Shown: one piece after another, positions 1,140 to 25,125 of the stretch
Layout: each line of letters starts with the position of its first letter
How positions within the stretch are numbered: position 1 is the first letter of the stretch
Origin: an uncultured Lachnospiraceae bacterium
Lineage (GTDB): Bacteria; Bacillota; Clostridia; Lachnospirales; Lachnospiraceae
DNA: 42,758 nt
NCBI GenBank assembly: GCA_947089585.1
Contig: CAMULB010000005.1
Location: 1 to 42,758, forward strand
Direction: 5' to 3'
Position numbers and translations under genes: made by a program
The notes under the pieces: model-generated
The model's input: only the letters and a program-made list of their open reading frames with translations
Databases searched by the model: none
Told to the model about the DNA's origin: nothing

Positions 1140-4100
1140 ATGGCAGCCAGACAACAAAATGGAAAAAAAAGAAGCGGCAGCGCAAAGGGCAGCGCCGCAA
1201 AAAAGAAGCAGGCAGAGAGCGAAATTCCTTTTTTGAACGAGGTCGTTCTGCTGGCGATTCTGGCGATCTGTATTCTGCTTTTATTGAGTAACTTTGGCGC
1301 GGGCGGTGTGATCGGCGCAAAGATCAGCGGTTTTTTCTTTGGGCTGTTTGGGCTCTCGGCGTATTTGCTGCCGATTTGTGTCTTTGTCGGAGCAGCCTTT
1401 TACATGTCCAACAAACGGAATCGAATTGCAGTCATCAAGCTGGTGGCTGCAGTCCTGTTTGTAATGTTTTTCTGTCTCTTTGTAGAGCTTGTGGTGGTGG
1501 GAAAGACCGAGGAGACGATTGCCGCTTCCTTCACCTACGGCGCCGAGCATAAGAACGGCGGCGGGATTGTGGGCGGATGCCTCTCGCATTTGCTGATCGG
1601 AGCGTTCGGGGTGATCGGCGCTTATGTGGTGGACATTATCGTGCTGATCATCAGTCTGGTGCTGATCACGGAGCGTTCCTTTTTGGGCGGTGTGAAAAAG
1701 AGCAGCAAGAAGGTCTATGACACGGCAAAGGAGGATGCGGTTCGATGTCGGGAGCATGTGGTGCAAAAGAGGGAGGAGCGGGCCCGGATGCGGCTTGACC
1801 GCAAGGTGGAGGGCGTTGCCGTGGATACGAAGATTGTTCCGCCGGTGCTGGACTTTTCCGACAATCTAAGCGAGCTAAAGCCCGTAAAGCAGACGCCGCA
1901 GTTTACCAAAAATGCAATGGAGAAGCTGTTTTTGTCACAAAAGACAGACCAGCAGCCGGTGTTGGAGCAAGAGCGGGATACACGGCTTCAAGGCCGGCAG
2001 AATGGGGAACATGAGACGGTGGAATTTCCGCGTCAGTCCCAGTCGGCCTTTACCGGTACGGAGCAGGGGGTGCCGTCGGTCAGCTGGTCTGCCGGCCGGG
2101 ACGAGCCGTCGTCTGTGCAGGGCAGCATGTCTGCCGGCCGGACGGAGTCGTCATTTGATGAAACGGAATTGCTGCTGACGCGGTCAGCGCTTTCGATGCC
2201 GGTGCATCCGGTAGTCACCAGGCGTGAGCCGTCTATTGTGGTGCAAAACGGCAGTACGGAGGAAGCGGCAGATAAGACGGCATTATACGACGGCGGTGTT
2301 GGGCGGCAGCAGATCCCGTCTGAGAGAGCGTATGCTCCAGATGATCTGAGGGATGAAACCGGTTCAGAGGAGACGGGCGGATTTGAAACGGGGTCGGACG
2401 AGCGGTTTGTGCTGCATGCGGAATACGGCGTTGAGCCGGAGGAGCGGTTTGTGCCGCCAGCAGCATATGAGATAGAAGCAGAGCCGGAGGATGTATTGAC
2501 AGAGGATGCGTTGGGCCTGGAGGTGAGAAGAATGATCCAGGATGAGAACGCGGATTTTGGAATCGACGATTGGGGCAAAACAAATGCAGAGGAAGGAAGC
2601 ATTGATTTTTCGCAGGATATTTTTTCGCAAATGGAGATTACTGAGGAGGATGCAGACAGAGCATTTGCAGCAGAACCCATTTTACCAGGCGACGAGCAGT
2701 GTGTCTTGCCAGCTGACGAGCAACGCGTTTTGCCGGATGACGAGCAAGCACCCGTTTTACCAGCCGATGCGCAAAGGAGCGCGCAGCCGCCACGGGCTGT
2801 TCGGATGCCGCAGGAGGTTAAGCGGACGCCTGTGACAGAGCCGGGTGCTTCCGAGCGATTTGACCCGTTTGATTCCGCAGAGCCGCAGATGCAGCAGCAG
2901 CCCAAGCCGGCGTATCGGTTTCCGCCTACGTCCCTGTTGAAAGCAGGAAATGGCAATCAGGGTGACAGCCAGCAGCATTTGCAGGAGACGGCCTTAAAGC
3001 TGCAGCAGACGCTGAAAAACTTTGGCGTCAACGTTACGATCACCGATGTCAGCTGCGGGCCCTCGGTTACGCGCTATGAGCTACAGCCTGAGATGGGGGT
3101 TAAGGTCAGTAAGATTGTCAATCTGGCGGATGATATCAAGCTCAATCTGGCGGCGGCGGATATCCGGATTGAAGCCCCGATTCCGGGAAAGGCAGCGGTC
3201 GGGATTGAGGTGCCGAACAAAGAGACGGTGATGGTAAGGTTCCGCGATATGGTGGAGGCGGACGCATTCAAAAATCATGCTTCCAGCATCTGTTTTACCG
3301 CCGGTAAGGATATCGCCGGACAGGTAGTGGTGGCGGATATCGCCAAGATGCCCCATCTTTTGATTGCGGGCGCCACCGGTTCGGGAAAATCGGTCTGCAT
3401 CAATACAATTATTATGAGTATTCTCTATAAGGCCAATCCAGAGGATGTGAAGCTGATCCTGATTGACCCGAAGGTGGTGGAGTTAAGTGTTTATAACGGG
3501 ATTCCGCACCTCTTTATTCCGGTTGTGACCGACCCCAAGAAAGCGGCCGGCGCACTGCATTGGGCTGTGGCGGAGATGACCGAGCGTTACCAGAAGTTTG
3601 CCGAGTACCAAGTGCGGGATTTGAAGGGATACAATAAGAAGGTCGAGGCAATCGGTGAGATCGCGGATGAGACAAAACCGCAGAAGATGCCGCAGATTGT
3701 GATCGTAGTGGACGAGCTGGCGGATTTGATGATGGTGGCGGCGGGAGAAGTCGAGGATGCGATCTGCCGGCTGGCTCAGCTGGCCCGTGCAGCCGGCATT
3801 CATATGATCATTGCCACGCAGCGACCGTCGGTGGACGTCATTACCGGCTTGATCAAGGCCAATATGCCTTCGCGGATTGCGTTTTCCGTCTCTTCCGGGG
3901 TGGATTCGCGGACGATTCTCGATATGAACGGGGCGGAGAAGCTGTTGGGAAACGGCGATATGCTGTTTTATCCGCAGGGAATTCCGAAGCCGGTTCGCGT
4001 GCAGGGCCCCTTCGTATCCGACGGCGAGGTGGAGGCCGTGGTTGATTTCTTAAAGGAACAGAATATGGCGGTCTATAACGCGGAAATTGAAGCGAAGATG

Positions 4101-4364
4101 AATACGGCTGCCAGCGGAGGAGGCCCAGGCGGAGCCAATGAACGCGACGATTATTTTGTCGATGCCGGAAAATTTGTCATTGAGAAGGATAAGGGTTCCA
4201 TCGGAATGCTGCAGCGTTGGTTTAAGGTGGGCTTTAATCGGGCGGCACGGATTATGGACCAGTTGGAGCAGGCCGGCGTGGTAGGGCCTGAGGAGGGCAC
4301 GAAGCCCAGGCGCGTTTTGATGTCGATGGAGCAGTTTGAAGCGTATGTCGATGAATTCGTGTAA
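1140..4364 (+). CDS. ftsK: DNA translocase FtsK/SpoIIIE
   Basis: This is a membrane-anchored, ATP-driven DNA pump that moves chromosome ends through the division or sporulation septum. An in-frame GTG lies at 1134, but AGGAGG at 1128-1133 sits 6 bases before the ATG at 1140, which I take as the start (1074 residues). The N-terminus has a basic Lys-rich tail, then four or five membrane helices (about 30-190). A linker of about 380 acidic, Pro/Glu/Gln-rich residues follows and contains short internal repeats (LPxDEQ, SAGR, EERFV). The RecA-like motor has Walker A GATGSGKS (about 744-751) and Walker B-like VIVVDELADLMM. A C-terminal winged-helix gamma domain (about 1007-1074) should read KOPS/SRS-type sequences. 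At 1074 residues it is longer than B. subtilis SpoIIIE, because of the linker. Confidence 0.95.
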   Translation: MAARQQNGKKRSGSAKGSAAKKKQAESEIPFLNEVVLLAILAICILLLLSNFGAGGVIGAKISGFFFGLFGLSAYLLPICVFVGAAFYMSNKRNRIAVIKLVAAVLFVMFFCLFVELVVVGKTEETIAASFTYGAEHKNGGGIVGGCLSHLLIGAFGVIGAYVVDIIVLIISLVLITERSFLGGVKKSSKKVYDTAKEDAVRCREHVVQKREERARMRLDRKVEGVAVDTKIVPPVLDFSDNLSELKPVKQTPQFTKNAMEKLFLSQKTDQQPVLEQERDTRLQGRQNGEHETVEFPRQSQSAFTGTEQGVPSVSWSAGRDEPSSVQGSMSAGRTESSFDETELLLTRSALSMPVHPVVTRREPSIVVQNGSTEEAADKTALYDGGVGRQQIPSERAYAPDDLRDETGSEETGGFETGSDERFVLHAEYGVEPEERFVPPAAYEIEAEPEDVLTEDALGLEVRRMIQDENADFGIDDWGKTNAEEGSIDFSQDIFSQMEITEEDADRAFAAEPILPGDEQCVLPADEQRVLPDDEQAPVLPADAQRSAQPPRAVRMPQEVKRTPVTEPGASERFDPFDSAEPQMQQQPKPAYRFPPTSLLKAGNGNQGDSQQHLQETALKLQQTLKNFGVNVTITDVSCGPSVTRYELQPEMGVKVSKIVNLADDIKLNLAAADIRIEAPIPGKAAVGIEVPNKETVMVRFRDMVEADAFKNHASSICFTAGKDIAGQVVVADIAKMPHLLIAGATGSGKSVCINTIIMSILYKANPEDVKLILIDPKVVELSVYNGIPHLFIPVVTDPKKAAGALHWAVAEMTERYQKFAEYQVRDLKGYNKKVEAIGEIADETKPQKMPQIVIVVDELADLMMVAAGEVEDAICRLAQLARAAGIHMIIATQRPSVDVITGLIKANMPSRIAFSVSSGVDSRTILDMNGAEKLLGNGDMLFYPQGIPKPVRVQGPFVSDGEVEAVVDFLKEQNMAVYNAEIEAKMNTAASGGGPGGANERDDYFVDAGKFVIEKDKGSIGMLQRWFKVGFNRAARIMDQLEQAGVVGPEEGTKPRRVLMSMEQFEAYVDEFV

Positions 4365-4473
4365 ACGGGCGTAGCAGGATACAGCCGCAGAGCATGGGAA
4401 GGAACGACGCGGTATGGTCGTGAAATGCGGCAAAATACGATTATGTTTGAAAGATTCAGGGAGGGAAACAAGG

Positions 4474-6144
4474 ATGAAGACAGATATTCAGATTGCACAG
4501 GAAGCACAGATGCTTCCAATTCAGGAGATTGCATCCCAGCTTCAGATTGCACCGGAGGAGTTAGAGCTGTACGGCAAATATAAGGCCAAGCTAAGCGACG
4601 AATTGATGGAACGGGTGAAGGACAATCCCAAGGGCAAGCTGATTCTGGTAACGGCGATCAATCCGACGCCGGCCGGAGAGGGAAAGACCACCACCAGCAT
4701 TGGCCTTGGCCAGGCGTTTGGCAGGCTGGGGAAAAAGGCGGTGCTGGCATTGCGGGAGCCCTCTCTCGGCCCCTGCTTTGGCATCAAGGGCGGCGCTGCC
4801 GGAGGCGGCTATGCCCAGGTTGTGCCGATGGAAGATCTGAATCTTCATTTTACCGGAGATTTCCATGCGATTACCTCGGCCAATAATCTGCTGGCAGCGC
4901 TTTTGGACAACCACATCCAGCAGGGAAACGCGCTGGGCATCGACCCCCGACAGGTTGTGTGGAAGCGCTGCCTCGACATGAATGACCGTTCTCTGCGCAA
5001 CATTGTCGTTGGCCTTGGCAGTAAGATGGACGGCATGGTGCGGGAGGATCATTTTGTGATTACGGTGGCCTCGGAGATTATGGCCGTGCTTTGCTTGGCG
5101 GACGACATGGAGGATTTGAAAAAAAGGCTGGGCCGGATGATTGTCGCCTATTCCTTTGAAGGAAAGCCGATTACAGCCGAGGATCTGCAGGCGACCGGCG
5201 CGATGGCGGCTCTGTTGAAGGACGCTTTAAAGCCCAATCTGATTCAGACCCTGGAGCATACGCCGGCCATTGTCCACGGCGGTCCGTTTGCAAACATTGC
5301 ACATGGCTGTAACAGTGTCCGCGCCACAAAGACAGCCTTGAAGCTGGCGGATTATGTGATTACAGAAGCTGGATTCGGCGCCGATCTTGGTGCAGAGAAA
5401 TTTTTTGATATCAAATGCCGTATGGCCGGTTTACAACCGGACGCAGTTGTATTGGTCGCGACGATACGCGCCCTCAAATATAACGGCGGAGTGCCTAAGA
5501 CCGTGCTGGAGCAGGAAAATCTGGAGGCATTAAAAAGCGGAATTGCCAATTTGGAAAAGCACATCGAGAATTTGAAGCATTACGGCGTGCCGGTCGTTGT
5601 GACACTGAATTCCTTCCTCACCGACAGCGAGGCAGAGACTGCGTATGTCGAACAATTCTGCCGGCAGCATGGGTGTGAATTTGCACTTTCAAGGGTCTGG
5701 GAGCAAGGCGGTGCAGGTGGAATTGCGCTGGCTGAGAAGGTACTTTACACGCTGGAGGAAAAGGAGAGCCGTTTCCATACGCTGTACGAGGATTCCCTCG
5801 GAATCAAGGAGAAGATCGAGAAAATTGCCAAGGAGATTTACGGCGCGGCCGGCGTCACCTACGCACCAGCTGCGTCAAAGGAGATTCGGCGGATCGAAGA
5901 GCTGGGGATGAAGGAATTTCCGGTCTGTATGGCCAAGACTCAGTATTCTCTGTCCGACGATCCGAATAAATTGGGACGGCCTGACGGTTTTACGCTTCAG
6001 GTGCGCGAGGTCTATGCATCGGCCGGAGCCGGCTTTGTCGTTGCGATTACCGGCGCGATTATGACGATGCCGGGTCTGCCCAAGGTTCCTGCCGCCAACA
6101 GCATTGACGTAGACGAGAGCGGCGTGATTACCGGGCTGTTTTAG
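4474..6144 (+). CDS. fhs: Formate-tetrahydrofolate ligase
   Basis: The enzyme makes 10-formyl-THF from formate, THF and ATP in the cytoplasm. It supplies one-carbon units for purines and, in acetogens, the methyl branch of the Wood-Ljungdahl pathway. The open frame extends up to 4414, but AGGGAGGG at 4457-4464 fits the ATG at 4474, giving 556 residues, the usual size. The nucleotide-binding loop [11 protein letters not shown] is at about 66-76, followed by the family block [18 protein letters not shown]. It ends with the typical [10 protein letters not shown] segment near the C-terminus. It is 13 bases upstream of folD, whose product catalyses the next two steps. No THF riboswitch was recognised in the ftsK-fhs gap. 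Confidence 0.97.
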
Positions 6145-6157
6145 AGGGGAGAAAGAG

Positions 6158-7009
6158 ATGGCTGTTATCATAGACGGAAAGAAGATTTCACAGCAGATCA
6201 AGGATGAATTGAAGGAGCGCGTAGAAGCGTTGCAGGCAGAGGGCAAGAGCGGTGCGTTGGCGGTGGTTCAAGTCGGATCGGATCCGGCTTCTGGCGTCTA
6301 TGTGCGCAATAAGAAAAATGCCTGCGCTTACATCGGCATCGAGTCTTTGGCTTACGAGCTGAAGGAGGAGACGACCCAGCAGGAGCTGCTGTCCTTGATT
6401 GAAAAATTAAACCAGGACGATCACGTCAAGGGAATTTTGGTGCAGCTTCCGCTGCCGGCGCATATTGATGAAAATGCGGTGATCCGGGCGATTGCGCCGC
6501 AAAAGGACGTGGACGGCTTTCATCCTCAGAGCGTAGGTCTGATGACGATTGGCCAAGACGGATTTTTGCCCTGCACGCCGGCCGGGATCATTCAGCTCTT
6601 GAAGCGAACCGGGATTGAAATTGCCGGCAAGCACTGTGTCATCATTGGCCGCAGCAATATTGTCGGCAAGCCGATGGCGCTTCTGATGTTGCGCGAGCAT
6701 GCGACGGTGACAATTACGCATTCACGAACCAAGAATTTGCAGGAAATTTGCCGTCAGGCGGATATTCTGATTGCCGCCTTAGGAAAGCCGCGGTTTGTGG
6801 GCGCAGAGTATATCAAGGAGGGGGCGGTTGTAATTGATGTCGGCATTCACCGCAATGAAGAAAACAAGCTGTGCGGCGATGTCGATTTTGAGAACGTAGA
6901 ACCGCTGACCTCGGCCATTACTCCGGTGCCCGGCGGCGTAGGGCCGATGACGATTGCCATGCTGATGCAGAACTGCGTGGAGAGCATTGCCAAAGAGGGA
7001 GCCGTATGA
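6158..7009 (+). CDS. folD: Bifunctional methylene-THF dehydrogenase/methenyl-THF cyclohydrolase
   Basis: FolD interconverts 10-formyl-THF, 5,10-methenyl-THF and 5,10-methylene-THF, the last step being NAD(P)-dependent. The 283-residue length is typical. Visible signatures are YVRNKKNACAYIGI (catalytic Tyr/Lys region), VQLPLP, PCTPAGIIQLL, GRSNIVGKPM (Rossmann dinucleotide site) and the C-terminal PVPGGVGPMTIAML. An AGAGGGGAG ribosome site precedes the ATG. Together with fhs it forms a folate one-carbon unit. Its stop codon overlaps the start of the next gene (ATGA), implying translational coupling. Confidence 0.97.
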   Translation: MAVIIDGKKISQQIKDELKERVEALQAEGKSGALAVVQVGSDPASGVYVRNKKNACAYIGIESLAYELKEETTQQELLSLIEKLNQDDHVKGILVQLPLPAHIDENAVIRAIAPQKDVDGFHPQSVGLMTIGQDGFLPCTPAGIIQLLKRTGIEIAGKHCVIIGRSNIVGKPMALLMLREHATVTITHSRTKNLQEICRQADILIAALGKPRFVGAEYIKEGAVVIDVGIHRNEENKLCGDVDFENVEPLTSAITPVPGGVGPMTIAMLMQNCVESIAKEGAV

Positions 7010-18639: not shown

Positions 18640-18835
18640 AGCGAATGAGAAGGAGCTTCCTGGAATGTGCGACACCCTGCTATTTTGAACCTACATTTTT
18701 GTTTACGGGAATCCTACATCTCTGATCGGATGTCAGGCCGCCAGAGGTCAGCGGAAGGCAGAAGAGCAGATGCGGACACCCACCTAGCTTTGCTAGGAGT
18801 CAAAATTGCAGGAAACGGCATTTTGGGATCCTACA
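18640..18835 (+). ncRNA. ssrS: 6S RNA
   Basis: 6S RNA mimics an open promoter and sequesters sigma-A RNA polymerase in stationary phase. The roughly 195-base transcript has the expected architecture. A closing stem pairs TCCTGGAATGTGC near the 5' end with GGCATTTTGGGA near the 3' end, and CCCTGC with GCAGG. A large central bubble and a terminal-arm region with GGCCGCC and AGCGGAAGGCAG follow, and the 3' strand has the small CACCTAGC/GCTAGG hairpin, as in E. coli 6S (CACCTTG.. hairpin followed by GCAG..CGGCAT). No open frame with a ribosome site overlaps it, and a strong promoter precedes it. Exact ends are estimates. Confidence 0.85.
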
Positions 18836-22468: not shown

Positions 22469-22509
22469 TAAAAAAATGCAACATTTCTGATAAAATGTTG
22501 CATTTTTTT
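22469..22509 (+). terminator. Bidirectional terminator at the left end of the invertible segment
   Basis: AAAAAATGCAACATTT pairs with AAATGTTGCATTTTTT around a short CTGATA loop, with A- and T-runs on the two sides, so it should terminate in both directions. It stops transcripts from the YihY gene and also any transcript from the leftward sigma-28-like promoter at 22523-22549. Half of it overlaps the left 28-bp recombination-like site. Confidence 0.9.
22476..22503 (-). repeat. Left 28-bp dif-like inverted recombination site (candidate)
   Basis: Read on the minus strand the site is an 11-bp arm ATGCAACATTT, a 6-bp centre TATCAG, and an 11-bp arm AAATGTTGCAT. The 11-6-11 layout with inverted arms and an asymmetric centre is that of tyrosine-recombinase sites such as dif. 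A near copy in the opposite orientation is at 22627-22654; 19 consecutive bases (first arm, centre, AA) are identical. Confidence 0.65.
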
Positions 22510-22522
22510 ATTTACACCTTTA

Positions 22523-22549
22523 ATATCGGCCATTCTGGTCAATACTTAA
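22523..22549 (-). promoter_or_regulatory. Sigma-28 (SigD)-type promoter, pointing away from csrA-flagellin
   Basis: On the minus strand TTAA (22549-22546), a 15-bp spacer and a perfect GCCGATAT (22530-22523) match the SigD consensus (TAAA, 15 bp, GCCGATAT). Transcription would start near 22517 and run left into the terminator at 22509-22469 after only a few bases. No minus-strand gene lies in front of it. It sits inside the inverted-repeat-bounded segment. Confidence 0.65.
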
Positions 22550-22589
22550 CCCCTGAAATGGAAAAAGAATTGAAAAAAGAAAAGCTTTT

Positions 22590-22622
22590 GTCGGGAAAAG
22601 GTCTGTTTTTCCGGCTTTTTTT
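22590..22622 (+). terminator. Rightward terminator inside the invertible segment
   Basis: GTCGGGAAAA (22590-22599) pairs with TTTTTCCGGC (22606-22615) and seven T's follow. It reads toward csrA, so in the present orientation it blocks read-through into csrA-flagellin. Confidence 0.85.
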
Positions 22623-22626
22623 GTTG

Positions 22627-22654
22627 ATGCAACATTTTATCAGAACGGTTGCAT
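22627..22654 (+). repeat. Right 28-bp dif-like inverted recombination site (candidate)
   Basis: On the plus strand the first arm ATGCAACATTT and centre TATCAG are identical to the left site in opposite orientation; the second arm AACGGTTGCAT differs from the left AAATGTTGCAT at two positions. The site can form a GATGCAAC/GTTGCATC hairpin but has no T-run after it, so it should not terminate rightward transcription. Confidence 0.65.
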
Positions 22655-22656
22655 CT

Positions 22657-22757
22657 GCCTGACCGGGGAGAGTGGAGCTCCGATCGTGTTCCGGCAGGAA
22701 GGAGAAAAAGGAGCGCGCAGAAGGTCATCGTCATGGACGGAGACAAAAACAAGGAGG
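22657..22757 (+). promoter_or_regulatory. GGA-rich leader of csrA
   Basis: Eight GGA triplets lie in about 90 bases (22667, 22674, 22697, 22701, 22710, 22735, 22739, 22753), the last within the AAGGAGG ribosome site. GGA is the core of CsrA-binding sites, so CsrA autoregulation or sequestration by this leader is plausible. Some of the triplets may be chance in purine-rich sequence. Confidence 0.45.
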
Positions 22758-22761
22758 TTTT

Positions 22762-23046
22762 ATGCTGAAATTGACTGTCAAACCGGGAGAATATTTGCTG
22801 ATTGGCAATGAAATCAAACTGGTTTTCACCGGCGGAAGCAAGAACAATATGCACATTCTGATTGAGGCGCCAAGGACGATGAACATTGCAAGAAGTACGG
22901 CCCTGGAAAAATACGGCGTCGCCGGGCCGGGCAATGAGGTGAAACACCCGAAGGACCGGGAGCTTTCCCCGCAGGCGCAGGCAAAAATCAAAGCGATTCT
23001 GATGGAAGAGCGCAAACGGGCCAGAGCGGAAGCCAGAAGGGCGTGA
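22762..23046 (+). CDS. csrA: CsrA-family translational regulator with basic C-terminal tail
   Basis: CsrA dimers bind GGA motifs in mRNA hairpins; in Bacillus subtilis CsrA blocks the flagellin ribosome site and is antagonised by FliW. The start follows AAGGAGG by 4 bases, giving 94 residues. The core (1-50) has MLKLTVKPGEYLLIG, the beta-strand pattern, EAP at 35-37 and the conserved RNA-contact Arg44. The usual Arg6 is Val here. CsrA is normally 60-75 residues; this one adds about 30 residues ending in a very basic helix (MEERKRARAEARRA). It lies 120 bp upstream of flagellin and the two are probably co-transcribed. FliW is not in the window. Confidence 0.88.
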   Translation: MLKLTVKPGEYLLIGNEIKLVFTGGSKNNMHILIEAPRTMNIARSTALEKYGVAGPGNEVKHPKDRELSPQAQAKIKAILMEERKRARAEARRA

Positions 23047-23078: not shown

Positions 23079-23160
23079 AACGCAGAAACCCTTAGGAGAC
23101 TGCGTTGTTATAAAAACCATAATATTGCAAACGGATTTGCAAGGGAAAAACAAGGAGGAA
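23079..23160 (+). promoter_or_regulatory. CsrA-type GGA hairpins in the flagellin leader
   Basis: Hairpin 1 pairs AACGCAG (23079-23085) with CTGCGTT (23100-23106), and AGGAGA lies at the 3' side of its loop. Hairpin 2 is a perfect 7-bp stem TTGCAAA (23125-23131) / TTTGCAA (23136-23142) with the tetraloop CGGA, the ideal presentation of GGA to CsrA. The ribosome site AAGGAGGAA (23152-23160) supplies another GGA 21 bases downstream, a spacing a CsrA dimer could bridge. No separate promoter was found in this gap. Confidence 0.7.
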
Positions 23161-23166
23161 CACATT

Positions 23167-25125
23167 ATGGCAATGGTAGTACAACACAATTTAACGGCAA
23201 TGAATTCCAACAGAATGTTGGGCATCACCACAAGCGCACAGTCCAAATCATCGGAAAAGCTGTCATCTGGTTATCGCATTAACCGTGCAGCGGACGACGC
23301 AGCAGGCTTGACCATTTCCGAGAAAATGAGAAAGCAGATGCGGGGACTTGACCGTGCGTCCACCAATGCGCAGGATGGCGTATCTGCTGTGCAGACGGCG
23401 GAAGGAGCTTTGACCGAAGTGCATTCTATGCTGCAGAGAATGAACGAATTGGCCGTACAGGCATCCAACGGGACGAACAGCGAATCGGACCGCGATGCGA
23501 TCAAGGCCGAGATTGATCAGCTGACGACGGAGATTGACCGTGTCGCTGAGACAACCAAATTCAATGAGATTTATCTGTTGAAGGGGAACGCGGCCGGAGC
23601 TAAGACGACCAAGACGATTGCGGCGCATGATGCGGGTCTGGAAGGAAAGCTCACCGATCTGGGCGGCGGAAATTCCAGCTTTGCGCTGGAGAAGGCGTTG
23701 GAAAATGGTGATAAGGTAACGATTGCCGGCAAGGAGTACACGATTGGCACGTCAGAAAACCATAAGGATGCCGGGGAGCTGAATACGAGTACGGATGGGT
23801 ATTTAAAATCAGATAATGCGATATTTGATACTGCTTTGTCAGCAGGAGACAGTATTTCTTATCAGGGAAATACCTATACCTTGACGGAAAAGCTTTCAGC
23901 ATCTGATATTCAATGGGCAGCGAATGATACAGTGACAATCGGGGATACTCAGTATACGGTTGTGCCAGATACAGCTACACCGACTGCGAATCAAGTTAAA
24001 GCATCCGATATGCAGAGCTTTGTACAGAAAGCTCTGGAAGAGGGCAAACAGGTAAAAGCAGCTGTAAGTGATAAGCTGACGGTAGCTTCAACCGCAGCCA
24101 GTGGAACGGCGAATGCAGCAGCAGCGTCGAAAACTGTAGCAGGGTCAGACGTGATCATTGTTTCCTCTTTAGAAGCAGGGGAGATCAGCAGTTTTCTATT
24201 AGCAGATACAAAAGCATCAACGGTTGCCAAAGCCGGAGCTGGAATTACGGATACTACTCAAACGAAGCTTGCAGCGGGCGACAGCGTAACCATTGGCGGC
24301 GTTACGACAAAGGCCACCGCAGAAACACCGGCCTCTGCCAAAGCCGTATACGATGCGATTGATGCTTTGACGGCTGGCGATACGGTAAAGGTTGGAACCG
24401 GCGTAGATGAAGTTACCTATACGATTGCAGAGGAAGCAGACGTAGATGAAGCGGCATTCAAGCTCACAAAGGATGCAATTTTATCCAAAATTAAAGATGG
24501 GGACGTCGTAGAGATTGGCGGAAATGCTCAGACCGTGATCGGAGACATTGCCCTTCCCGAAACAAATGACAAGGTAATCAGCGCAAAGCAGGCTTACAAC
24601 ATGATCGCGGATGAGCTGCAGAAGGCTTCCAGCATTGGCGCGGACACCGAAGCGGCTGTAACCAATGACGGGGACGGAAAATTTACGATCACTCAGGGCA
24701 GTGTGGAAGTAAAGGATGCGTTGTCATTCAGCCTGCATGTAGGATCAGACGCCGATATGACCAATAAGATTACCGTAGACATTGATGCGATGAGTGCGGC
24801 AGGTCTTGGTGTAAAAGGCATAAGCGTCTTTGACGACAGCGGTATGGCGGCAACCTATGCTATTGATGCGATTGCAGGCGCAATCTCTACGGTATCTGCG
24901 CAGCGTTCCGCGCTTGGCGCCGTTCAGAATCGTTTGGAGCATACGATTGCCAACCTCGACAACGTAGTAGAGAACACGACCGCAGCAGAATCCCGCATTC
25001 GTGATACCGATATGGCTTCCGAGATGGTGGAGTACTCCAAGAACAATATCCTGGCGCAGGCTGGACAGTCTATGCTGGCACAGGCAAATCAGTCTACACA
25101 GGGTGTATTGTCCTTACTGCAATAA
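23167..25125 (+). CDS. fliC: Flagellin with long repeat-bearing central domain
   Basis: Filament subunit of the flagellum. The frame is open from 23125 but AAGGAGGAA is 6 bases before the ATG at 23167, whose product begins MAMVVQHNL as flagellins do (652 residues). The D0/D1 N-terminal region (about 1-140) has SSGYRINRAADDAAGL and AVQASNG; the C-terminal D1/D0 (about 570-652) has RSALGAVQNRLEHTI and ends SLLQ. The central surface domain (about 150-565) holds about six copies of a beta-hairpin motif of the form xGDxVTIGGxxYTI (for example ENGDKVTIAGKEYTI, AGDSVTIGG, DGDVVEIGG) separated by short helices. The stretch about 23760-24250 is more AT-rich than the ends, suggesting domain exchange. 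Confidence 0.97.
   Translation: MAMVVQHNLTAMNSNRMLGITTSAQSKSSEKLSSGYRINRAADDAAGLTISEKMRKQMRGLDRASTNAQDGVSAVQTAEGALTEVHSMLQRMNELAVQASNGTNSESDRDAIKAEIDQLTTEIDRVAETTKFNEIYLLKGNAAGAKTTKTIAAHDAGLEGKLTDLGGGNSSFALEKALENGDKVTIAGKEYTIGTSENHKDAGELNTSTDGYLKSDNAIFDTALSAGDSISYQGNTYTLTEKLSASDIQWAANDTVTIGDTQYTVVPDTATPTANQVKASDMQSFVQKALEEGKQVKAAVSDKLTVASTAASGTANAAAASKTVAGSDVIIVSSLEAGEISSFLLADTKASTVAKAGAGITDTTQTKLAAGDSVTIGGVTTKATAETPASAKAVYDAIDALTAGDTVKVGTGVDEVTYTIAEEADVDEAAFKLTKDAILSKIKDGDVVEIGGNAQTVIGDIALPETNDKVISAKQAYNMIADELQKASSIGADTEAAVTNDGDGKFTITQGSVEVKDALSFSLHVGSDADMTNKITVDIDAMSAAGLGVKGISVFDDSGMAATYAIDAIAGAISTVSAQRSALGAVQNRLEHTIANLDNVVENTTAAESRIRDTDMASEMVEYSKNNILAQAGQSMLAQANQSTQGVLSLLQ

What the first reader, a model, noticed from the sequence alone, without database searches (positions are those of the whole stretch)
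22476..22654. Candidate invertible sigma-28 promoter switch controlling csrA-flagellin, captured in the OFF orientation
Seen: two 28-bp sites in inverted orientation (22476-22503 and 22627-22654), each with 11-bp inverted arms and a shared 6-bp centre TATCAG; 19 consecutive bases are identical. Between them are a SigD-type promoter (TTAA, 15 bp, GCCGATAT) pointing left, away from csrA-flagellin, and a rightward terminator. As drawn, the promoter runs straight into a terminator completed by the left flank, and two rightward terminators block read-through to csrA. Inverting the segment would place the promoter about 150 bases upstream of csrA, would turn the internal terminator leftward, and would replace the T-run behind the left hairpin with CATCAACAAAA, while the right flank has no T-run. 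Every element therefore flips consistently between OFF and ON. Known: Clostridioides difficile has a flagellar switch of similar size (about 154 bp, 21-bp repeats) inverted by a tyrosine recombinase. Inference: this is a separate, dif-like-site-based flagellin phase-variation switch that also co-switches csrA.
Basis: partly seen in the sequence, partly recalled or inferred. Interest (0 to 1): 0.95.

Follow-up and report, generated by a model that had tools for sequence, protein, structure and literature searches.

The report
Flip-switch promoter for a flagellin operon
A Lachnospiraceae bacterium carries a 179-base DNA cassette, bounded by two mirror-image sites, that is predicted to flip and so turn a flagellin gene and its CsrA-like partner on or off; two related bacteria hold such a cassette in opposite orientations, and many relatives encode the likely flipping enzyme inside it.

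Summary
Two 28-bp sites (22476-22503, 22627-22654) match 26 of 28 in inverted orientation and enclose a sigma-28 promoter pointing away from a csrA-like/flagellin operon. Inverting the segment in silico removes both rightward terminators and aims the promoter at the operon.

The window is a minimal, recombinase-free member of a wider family. In many relatives the segment (738-1,087 bp in 41 loci) also encodes a ~192-aa tyrosine recombinase. Evidence for recombination: the 6-7-bp centre is identical within a site pair in 44 of 45 loci although 32 centres occur (at most 13 exact in 10,000 shuffles), and two Roseburia MAGs hold orthologous loci in opposite orientations. The operon-distal site doubles as a predicted terminator for the OFF transcript.

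The same genome has a second minimal switch, a third site pair beside another flagellin leader, and one strong, unlinked recombinase relative, the likely trans-acting enzyme.

Not shown: inversion in this strain, expression, or which enzyme acts. 47 of 48 scorable named loci are OFF, which is unexplained. The sites are not dif, and the 'csrA' is a paralogue.

The parts
22476..22503 (+). operon-distal recombination site, ATGCAACATTT-CTGATA-AAATGTTGCAT, full palindrome in its arms
22487..22492 (.). 6-bp centre (predicted crossover region) of the distal site
   Evidence: identical to the partner's centre; differs from the centre of the C68 switch
22627..22654 (-). operon-proximal recombination site, inverted, with a degenerate outer arm
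22638..22643 (.). 6-bp centre of the proximal site
22523..22549 (-). sigma-28 (SigD/FliA-type) promoter, pointing away from the operon (OFF)
   Evidence: FliA is encoded on contig C220
22467..22512 (-). predicted intrinsic terminator made from the distal site plus flanking T-run; would end the OFF sigma-28 transcript at once
   Evidence: (61-nt strand -24 kcal/mol, z -8.4); T-run pattern conserved in relatives
22472..22507 (+). rightward terminator-like structure formed in the OFF state by the distal site and the adjoining segment
   Evidence: not listed by the stricter scan
22590..22615 (+). rightward terminator-like structure inside the segment; becomes leftward after inversion
   Evidence: weak fold z -1.5
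22762..23046 (+). csrA-like paralogue, 94 aa, first gene of the switched operon
   Evidence: PF02599, E 1.3e-15; below both CsrA equivalog cut-offs; position 6 is V, not R
23167..25125 (+). flagellin, 652 aa
   Evidence: PF00669 E 7.6e-44 and PF00700 E 1.1e-27

Best explanation
The window carries a site-specific inversion cassette in which a sigma-28 promoter, drawn here facing away from a csrA-like/flagellin operon (OFF), is predicted to be flipped by a small tyrosine recombinase so that it would drive the operon (ON). Shown by sequence: two inverted sites with the same 6-bp centre, the promoter between them, and terminator geometry that changes consistently when the segment is inverted in silico. 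Inferred: the crossover falls in the centre; in OFF the sigma-28 transcript is ended within about 50 nt by the distal site, which folds as an intrinsic terminator, while two rightward terminators shield the operon; in ON the transcript crosses the proximal site, whose degenerate outer arm and missing T-run let it through. Because this segment has no recombinase gene, the enzyme is likely supplied in trans by the one close relative found in the genome (contig C93). That enzyme probably also works the second switch on C68; different centres would keep recombination within each pair, so each flagellin would switch on its own.
For: (1) Architecture. (2) A second copy in the same genome (C68) has the same order (distal site, leftward promoter, internal terminator-like repeat seen by eye, proximal site, csrA-like gene, flagellin) but centre TGTTTG instead of CTGATA. 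(3) Centre identity: of 46 arm-detected pairs (42 of 50 listed rec loci plus 4 from the genus), 45 had equal length and 44 of those 45 share the centre exactly; 32 distinct centres; 10,000 shuffles never exceeded 13 exact. (4) Opposite orientations: L170 and L175 (Roseburia MAGs) have collinear flanks while the recombinase segment is inverted relative to them; L175 reads rec - sigma-28 promoter - site - csrA - flagellin. A second ON-oriented locus, with variant arms, is G002:C40. (5) Recombinase inside the segment in relatives: PF00589; invariant residues include R42, K72, H140, R143, H166 and Y175 (that these are catalytic is recalled). (6) A sigma-28-like promoter (at most 1 mismatch) follows the recombinase on its strand in 36 of 48 scored loci, against 2 of 48 on the opposite strand. 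(7) Own genome: one strong relative, C93:2799-3371, E 2.3e-88, PF00589 E 7.1e-26, sister to the recombinase inside the G002:C65 csrA-flagellin switch, support 100/96. (8) Co-occurrence in the genus: the 4 of 6 genomes with such a recombinase are the 4 that match the switch/operon DNA; G004 and G005 have neither. (9) Terminator role of the distal site: more T in the 10 nt beyond it than beyond the proximal site in 44 of 45 loci (1 tie); hairpin more stable in 38 of 45. (10) FliA present.
Against: No reads were available, so neither inversion nor both orientations is shown in this strain. Among the 48 of 80 named loci with csrA within 500 bp of the recombinase, 47 are OFF and only 1 is ON; adding six genus loci (window, C68, G003:C39, G001:C9, G002:C65, G002:C40) ON is 2 of 54. 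A freely flipping switch would give more ON unless OFF dominates populations; this bias is unexplained. In 12 of the 48 loci no sigma-28-like promoter with at most 1 mismatch was found beside the recombinase, in 5 none with at most 2. The clear inverted pair is between two species (flanks about 73-86% identical), not two isolates of one. The C93 recombinase lies in no switch that I could find, and its nearest relative sits between 27-nt sites while the window's are 26-nt. The genome is about 91% complete, and a weaker recombinase match (C44, E 1.1e-8) also exists, so another enzyme is possible. G001 and G003 minimal switches coexist with recombinases of a different clade, so the enzyme-site pairing is not fixed. 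Whether G004 and G005 are flagellated was not tested, which weakens the co-occurrence argument. In 4 of 45 loci the distal site is the less palindromic one, and in 6 of 45 its hairpin is the weaker. The internal terminator is only weakly supported.
Confidence: 0.88

Rival explanations
1. A static bidirectional terminator and a leftward sigma-28 promoter making a short RNA: nothing inverts, and the mirror sites are terminator palindromes.
For: The left site folds as a strong hairpin with T-runs on both strands. Almost all scored loci show one orientation (47 of 48).
Against: A terminator needs no second inverted copy with an identical loop; loops match within pairs in 44 of 45 loci and vary between loci. 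L170/L175 are inverted. A tyrosine recombinase sits inside the segment in many relatives (those loci were found by the recombinase, so that call gives no rate; among the eight csrA-flagellin loci with a site pair that the DNA search led to in relatives, six have it and two lack it).
Confidence: 0.05
2. A decayed switch: it once inverted with an internal recombinase, lost it, and is now locked OFF.
For: The segment lacks the recombinase found in relatives. G003:C18 looks like such a relic: sigma-28 promoter and distal site but no proximal site and no csrA.
Against: Both sites keep identical centres and recognisable arms in two separate minimal switches of this genome, in G001 and in G003, and each such genome keeps a recombinase with an open frame.
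Confidence: 0.1
3. XerC/XerD or another host recombinase acts on dif-like sites, and the C93 enzyme is irrelevant.
For: The 11-6-11 layout resembles Xer sites (recalled); the recombinase family matches Xer catalytic domains.
Against: Several inverted pairs per genome with different centres do not fit a chromosome-dimer site; many relatives carry a dedicated recombinase within the segment; the genus genomes without that recombinase gave no match to the switch.
Confidence: 0.05
4. Mobile-element or phage attachment sites rather than a regulatory switch.
For: 64 contigs labelled viral hold relatives of the recombinase at 29-49% identity.
Against: The window's exact distal site (26 nt) has no exact match in viral contigs; no gene was recognised inside the window's segment beyond promoter and terminators, and 48 of 80 recombinase loci abut the same operon type.
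Confidence: 0.02

Closest known systems
Salmonella Hin/hix flagellin phase variation (recalled; Hin mentioned in passages of PMC11868660)
   Same: A promoter on an invertible segment controls a flagellin operon; the recombinase is encoded inside the segment (recalled).
   Different: Hin is a serine recombinase with hix sites; here the enzyme is a tyrosine recombinase, the promoter is sigma-28 type, the window's segment lacks the enzyme, and several site pairs with different spacers coexist.
Clostridioides difficile flagellar switch (RecV; PMC5386303, abstract and passages seen)
   Same: Short invertible segment (154 bp, 21-bp repeats), a recombinase not encoded in the segment, flagella affected, Clostridia.
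   Different: Lies in the 5' UTR upstream of flgB and acts after transcription initiation with the promoter outside; repeats AAGTT(A/G)CTAT(A/T)TTACAAAAAA look unrelated by eye; no flagellin-specific sigma-28 promoter in the segment.
E. coli fim switch (FimB/FimE; recalled)
   Same: ~200-aa tyrosine recombinases, promoter inside a short segment, enzyme acting in trans.
   Different: Target is fimbriae; NCBIfam models PRK09871 and PRK09870 (tyrosine-type DNA invertase; that they stand for the Fim enzymes is recalled) score 24-50 bits against cut-offs of 221-222.
C. difficile cwpV switch (described in passages of PMC5386303)
   Same: One orientation creates an intrinsic terminator that silences the gene.
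   Different: There the promoter is fixed and only the terminator flips; here promoter and terminators flip, and the recombination site itself is the terminator stem.
Providencia stuartii 844-bp invertible fimbrial segment enclosing a recombinase ORF (PMC5903667, passage seen)
   Same: Recombinase gene within the invertible segment.
   Different: Fimbrial locus, 14-bp imperfect repeats; no link to flagellin.

Membership tests
Invertible-promoter phase-variation switch (general) | promoter on a segment bounded by inverted repeats | tested here: met
Invertible-promoter phase-variation switch (general) | segment found in both orientations | tested here: met
   met between related species (L170 v L175), not within this strain
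Invertible-promoter phase-variation switch (general) | both orientations within one clonal population | not testable with these tools
   no reads
Invertible-promoter phase-variation switch (general) | dedicated site-specific recombinase | tested here: met
   in relatives inside the segment; in this genome only in trans, its action inferred
Invertible-promoter phase-variation switch (general) | expression follows orientation | not testable with these tools
   no transcript data
Hin/hix | serine recombinase | tested here: not met
   segment and C93 enzymes are PF00589, tyrosine recombinases
FimB/FimE invertases | meets the curated tyrosine-type DNA invertase models | tested here: not met
   PRK09871 38.7-49.7 bits v cut-off 222; PRK09870 24.4-34.7 v 221, three recombinases
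C. difficile RecV flagellar switch | segment upstream of flgB without internal promoter | tested here: not met
   here upstream of csrA-flagellin with an internal sigma-28 promoter; definition from PMC5386303 passages
XerCD/dif | recombinase reaches XerC or XerD cut-off | tested here: not met
   XerD 52.6-54.4 v 329.6; XerC 41.6-44 v 335.15; the best model, XerA, 69.1-75.6 v 220; three recombinases incl. C93
XerCD/dif | single dif per replicon (recalled) | tested here: not met
   pairs at C5 and C68 plus a third pair C42/C176

The most novel reading that the evidence does not exclude
One trans-acting 192-aa tyrosine recombinase runs a bank of separately addressed flagellin switches in a Lachnospiraceae cell: shared arms recruit the same enzyme, private 6-7-bp centres keep each pair apart, and a site also serves as the terminator that silences its own promoter. 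A third, larger switch would not flip the promoter but bring different flagellin leaders to a fixed sigma-28 promoter at the fliW-csrA-flgL locus. Clonal cells could thus display different combinations of flagellins with unrelated central domains.
Probability: 0.4. Interest if true: 0.9.

Novelty: new variant of a known kind. Interest (0 to 1): 0.77.

Why it matters
This genome has five Flagellin_N matches (one of them is FlgL), and gut flagellins are targets of host antibodies (PMC11285207, title and start of abstract in the listing). A DNA-level switch would explain why individual flagellin genes could be silent in a genome or culture, and it makes the flagellin repertoire a countable property of sequencing reads. 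The family also shows a simple design: interchangeable site centres and a site that is its own terminator. In the held library I saw no description of flagellin phase variation by inversion in Lachnospiraceae (searches; only the listed top rows were seen, for instance 15 of 1,709); papers outside that library were not searched.

Tried and rejected
Considered and rejected: static terminator, dif site, phage attachment site (see rivals). The promoter might serve a gene on the distal side: rejected, because its transcript would meet the distal hairpin at once and the distal neighbours of the window (PF03631 membrane protein) and C68 (kinase/response-regulator-like by eye) differ and converge on the cassette. 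Searched for the exact site in viral contigs: none. Rfam at gathering thresholds gave nothing in L216, L215, L034 and L193 and only 6S RNA in the window. I first read the shared contig ends in G001 (55 nt) and G003 (141 nt) as proof of both orientations in a population; I dropped that, since two near-identical flagellin leaders would break an assembly in the same way. A protein-database search of the C93 recombinase failed on a wrong frame and was not repeated, because the answer no longer mattered. No structure prediction was run.

Rows dropped before counts: one search used 42 of 50 listed loci plus 4 from the genus (8 dropped for want of two arm matches: L101, L103, L104, L111, L112, L115, L122, L177), and 1 of those 46 (L138) was left out for unequal length. 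One search used 45 loci (40 of those 42, plus window, C68, G003:C39, G001:C9 and G002:C65) and left out L138 and the ON locus L175; of 80 loci, 48 scored by csrA orientation against the recombinase; 3 had csrA farther than 500 bp, 1 had flagellin only, 28 had neither (9 of them with the recombinase near a contig end). Some loci are near-copies (L152/L168, L163/L174, L136/L169), so counts are not fully independent.

Full report
Observation. The pair is far beyond chance: 19 consecutive identical bases against a maximum of 14 in 2,000 dinucleotide shuffles, and at up to 2 mismatches only two loci in the 3.14-Mb assembly carry the pattern.

Organism. 

Geometry. In the drawn (OFF) state the promoter at 22523-22549 points left into the distal site, which with its flanks folds at -24 kcal/mol (z -8.4) and ends in a T-run; two rightward terminator-like structures lie between upstream genes and csrA-flagellin. 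Inverting 22487-22643 in silico leaves both sites unchanged in sequence, puts the promoter at 22581-22607 facing the operon, and leaves no rightward terminator by the same scan. The proximal site has a weaker hairpin (51-nt stretch -13.2 kcal/mol, z -1.5) and no T-run. The internal terminator is the weakest element (z -1.5).

A second switch in the same genome. Contig C68 repeats the layout with a different centre, TGTTTG, in front of another csrA-like gene and flagellin, also OFF. The two flagellins align over the N-terminal 138 residues (72% identical) and a 97-residue C-terminal stretch (51%), not in the middle (the C68 copy is cut by the contig end).

The family. In many relatives the segment is larger and holds a ~192-aa tyrosine recombinase between promoter and proximal site. 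It has only the catalytic PF00589 domain and falls far below the XerC, XerD, XerA and DNA-invertase cut-offs. Of 10 solved-structure sequences matched by its profile, 9 are named recombinase or integrase (Int) and one RaiA; best E 5.4e-10. In the window's family 31 of 299 genomes have a relative at E <= 1e-25. Beside the recombinase in those 48, a sigma-28-like promoter with at most 1 mismatch lies on its strand in 36 and on the opposite strand, as control, in 2.

Evidence that the sites recombine. With sites found by their arms alone, the centre is identical within the pair in 44 of 45 loci while 32 distinct centres occur; shuffling partners gives at most 13 exact in 10,000 trials. This is what a crossover region needing homology predicts. 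L170 and L175, both labelled Roseburia MAGs, have collinear flanks at about 73-86% identity on one strand while the recombinase segment matches on the other; L175 is the ON form, with promoter, site, csrA and flagellin in line. G002:C40 is a second ON-oriented locus with variant arms (GCGACA/TGTCGC), a 20-bp inverted repeat about 2.8 kb apart, and a divergent recombinase inside, whose direction relative to the promoter is the reverse of the usual one.

Site as terminator. In the 45 loci compared, the T-run beyond the distal site is richer than beyond the proximal site in 44 (1 tie, C68), and the distal hairpin is more stable in 38, less in 6, equal in 1. Arm pairing is better in the distal site in 26 loci, equal in 15, worse in 4. 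The inferred logic: one site silences the OFF transcript, the other is kept leaky for the ON transcript.

Which enzyme. The own genome has one strong recombinase relative, on C93, and one weak match, on C44. On the 9 kb read around C93 no csrA or flagellin was found. On the tree it is sister to the recombinase inside the G002:C65 csrA-flagellin switch (100/96), within a supported clade that also holds the L170 and L175 enzymes. G000, G001 and G003 have minimal switches and one such recombinase each; G002 has internal ones; G004 and G005 gave neither recombinase nor switch match. Trans action is therefore likely but not shown.

CsrA-like partner. The switched gene lacks arginine at position 6; 0 of the 48 switch-linked copies scored have it, by a crude motif match. 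That this residue matters for RNA binding in E. coli CsrA is recalled, not tested. The ordinary csrA stands beside fliW and flgL on C42 and passes the CsrA cut-offs (91.3 v 73); the switched one does not (24.0 v 73).

Third site pair. One end of C42 reads sigma-28 promoter - site - flagellin-leader-like sequence, and C176 begins with a flagellin start, its leader and a site with the same centre TATATC, next to nucleotidyltransferase and NeuB genes. G001 and G003 contigs break at the corresponding site. This suggests a larger rearrangement that changes which flagellin leader meets a fixed promoter; it is a lead only.

Against. There is no read-level proof; only 1 of 48 scored named loci is ON. 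Either OFF cells dominate, or switching is rare or biased, or something about the ON state is not understood.

Literature. PMC5386303 (abstract and passages), PMC5903667 (passages), PMC3720852 (passages; flagellin promoters in Roseburia and Eubacterium, with no occurrence of 'recombinase' or 'phase vari' in its main text), PMC11868660 (passages), PMC5622956 (one passage: R. hominis has flaA1, flaA2, flaA3 and flaB). PMC13174815 and PMC11285207 were seen only in listings. None of the rows listed by the ten searches described this system; several listings were cut to the top rows.

Verdict. A real, probably working flagellin phase switch: a new variant of a known kind, notable for its minimal trans-served form, the double use of the site as terminator, and parallel switches in one genome.

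Noticed in passing
L034 (G000:C68) 2081-2251: Second minimal csrA-flagellin switch in the same genome, OFF, with a different 6-bp centre.
   Followed up: yes
L234 (G000:C42) 37-63 and L236 (G000:C176) 206-232: Third site pair, same centre, one beside a sigma-28 promoter on the contig with flgL-fliW-csrA and one beside a flagellin leader and sugar-modification genes (NeuB); both near contig ends.
   Followed up: partly
L223 (G003:C58) 1-141, L216 (G003:C3) 1-141; L215 and L217 (G001:C36, C27) last 55 nt: Contigs break at a recombination site and share 141 or 55 nt; it could be an assembly branch from both orientations or from duplicate leaders.
   Followed up: partly
L039 (G002:C40) 3755-6590: About 2.8-kb segment with 20-bp inverted repeats, variant arms, a divergent recombinase and ATPase-like ORFs (by eye) inside, promoter facing csrA (ON).
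   Followed up: partly
L036 (G003:C18) 5230-5430: Flagellin with a sigma-28 promoter pointing away and a distal site but no proximal site or csrA found: looks like a switch locked OFF.
   Followed up: no
L125, L154, L142, L150: Relatives of the recombinase between inverted repeats without csrA or flagellin, next to large secreted-protein-like or glycosyltransferase-like ORFs (by eye); the family may switch other surface genes.
   Followed up: no
L099-L178: 47 of 48 scorable loci are in the OFF orientation; cause unknown.
   Followed up: partly
window 22745-22757 and 23146-23158: Identical 13-mer AAAAACAAGGAGG precedes both the csrA-like gene and the flagellin (shared ribosome-binding region).
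   Followed up: no
window 18654-18833: 6S RNA (RF00013, 72.7 bits).
   Followed up: no
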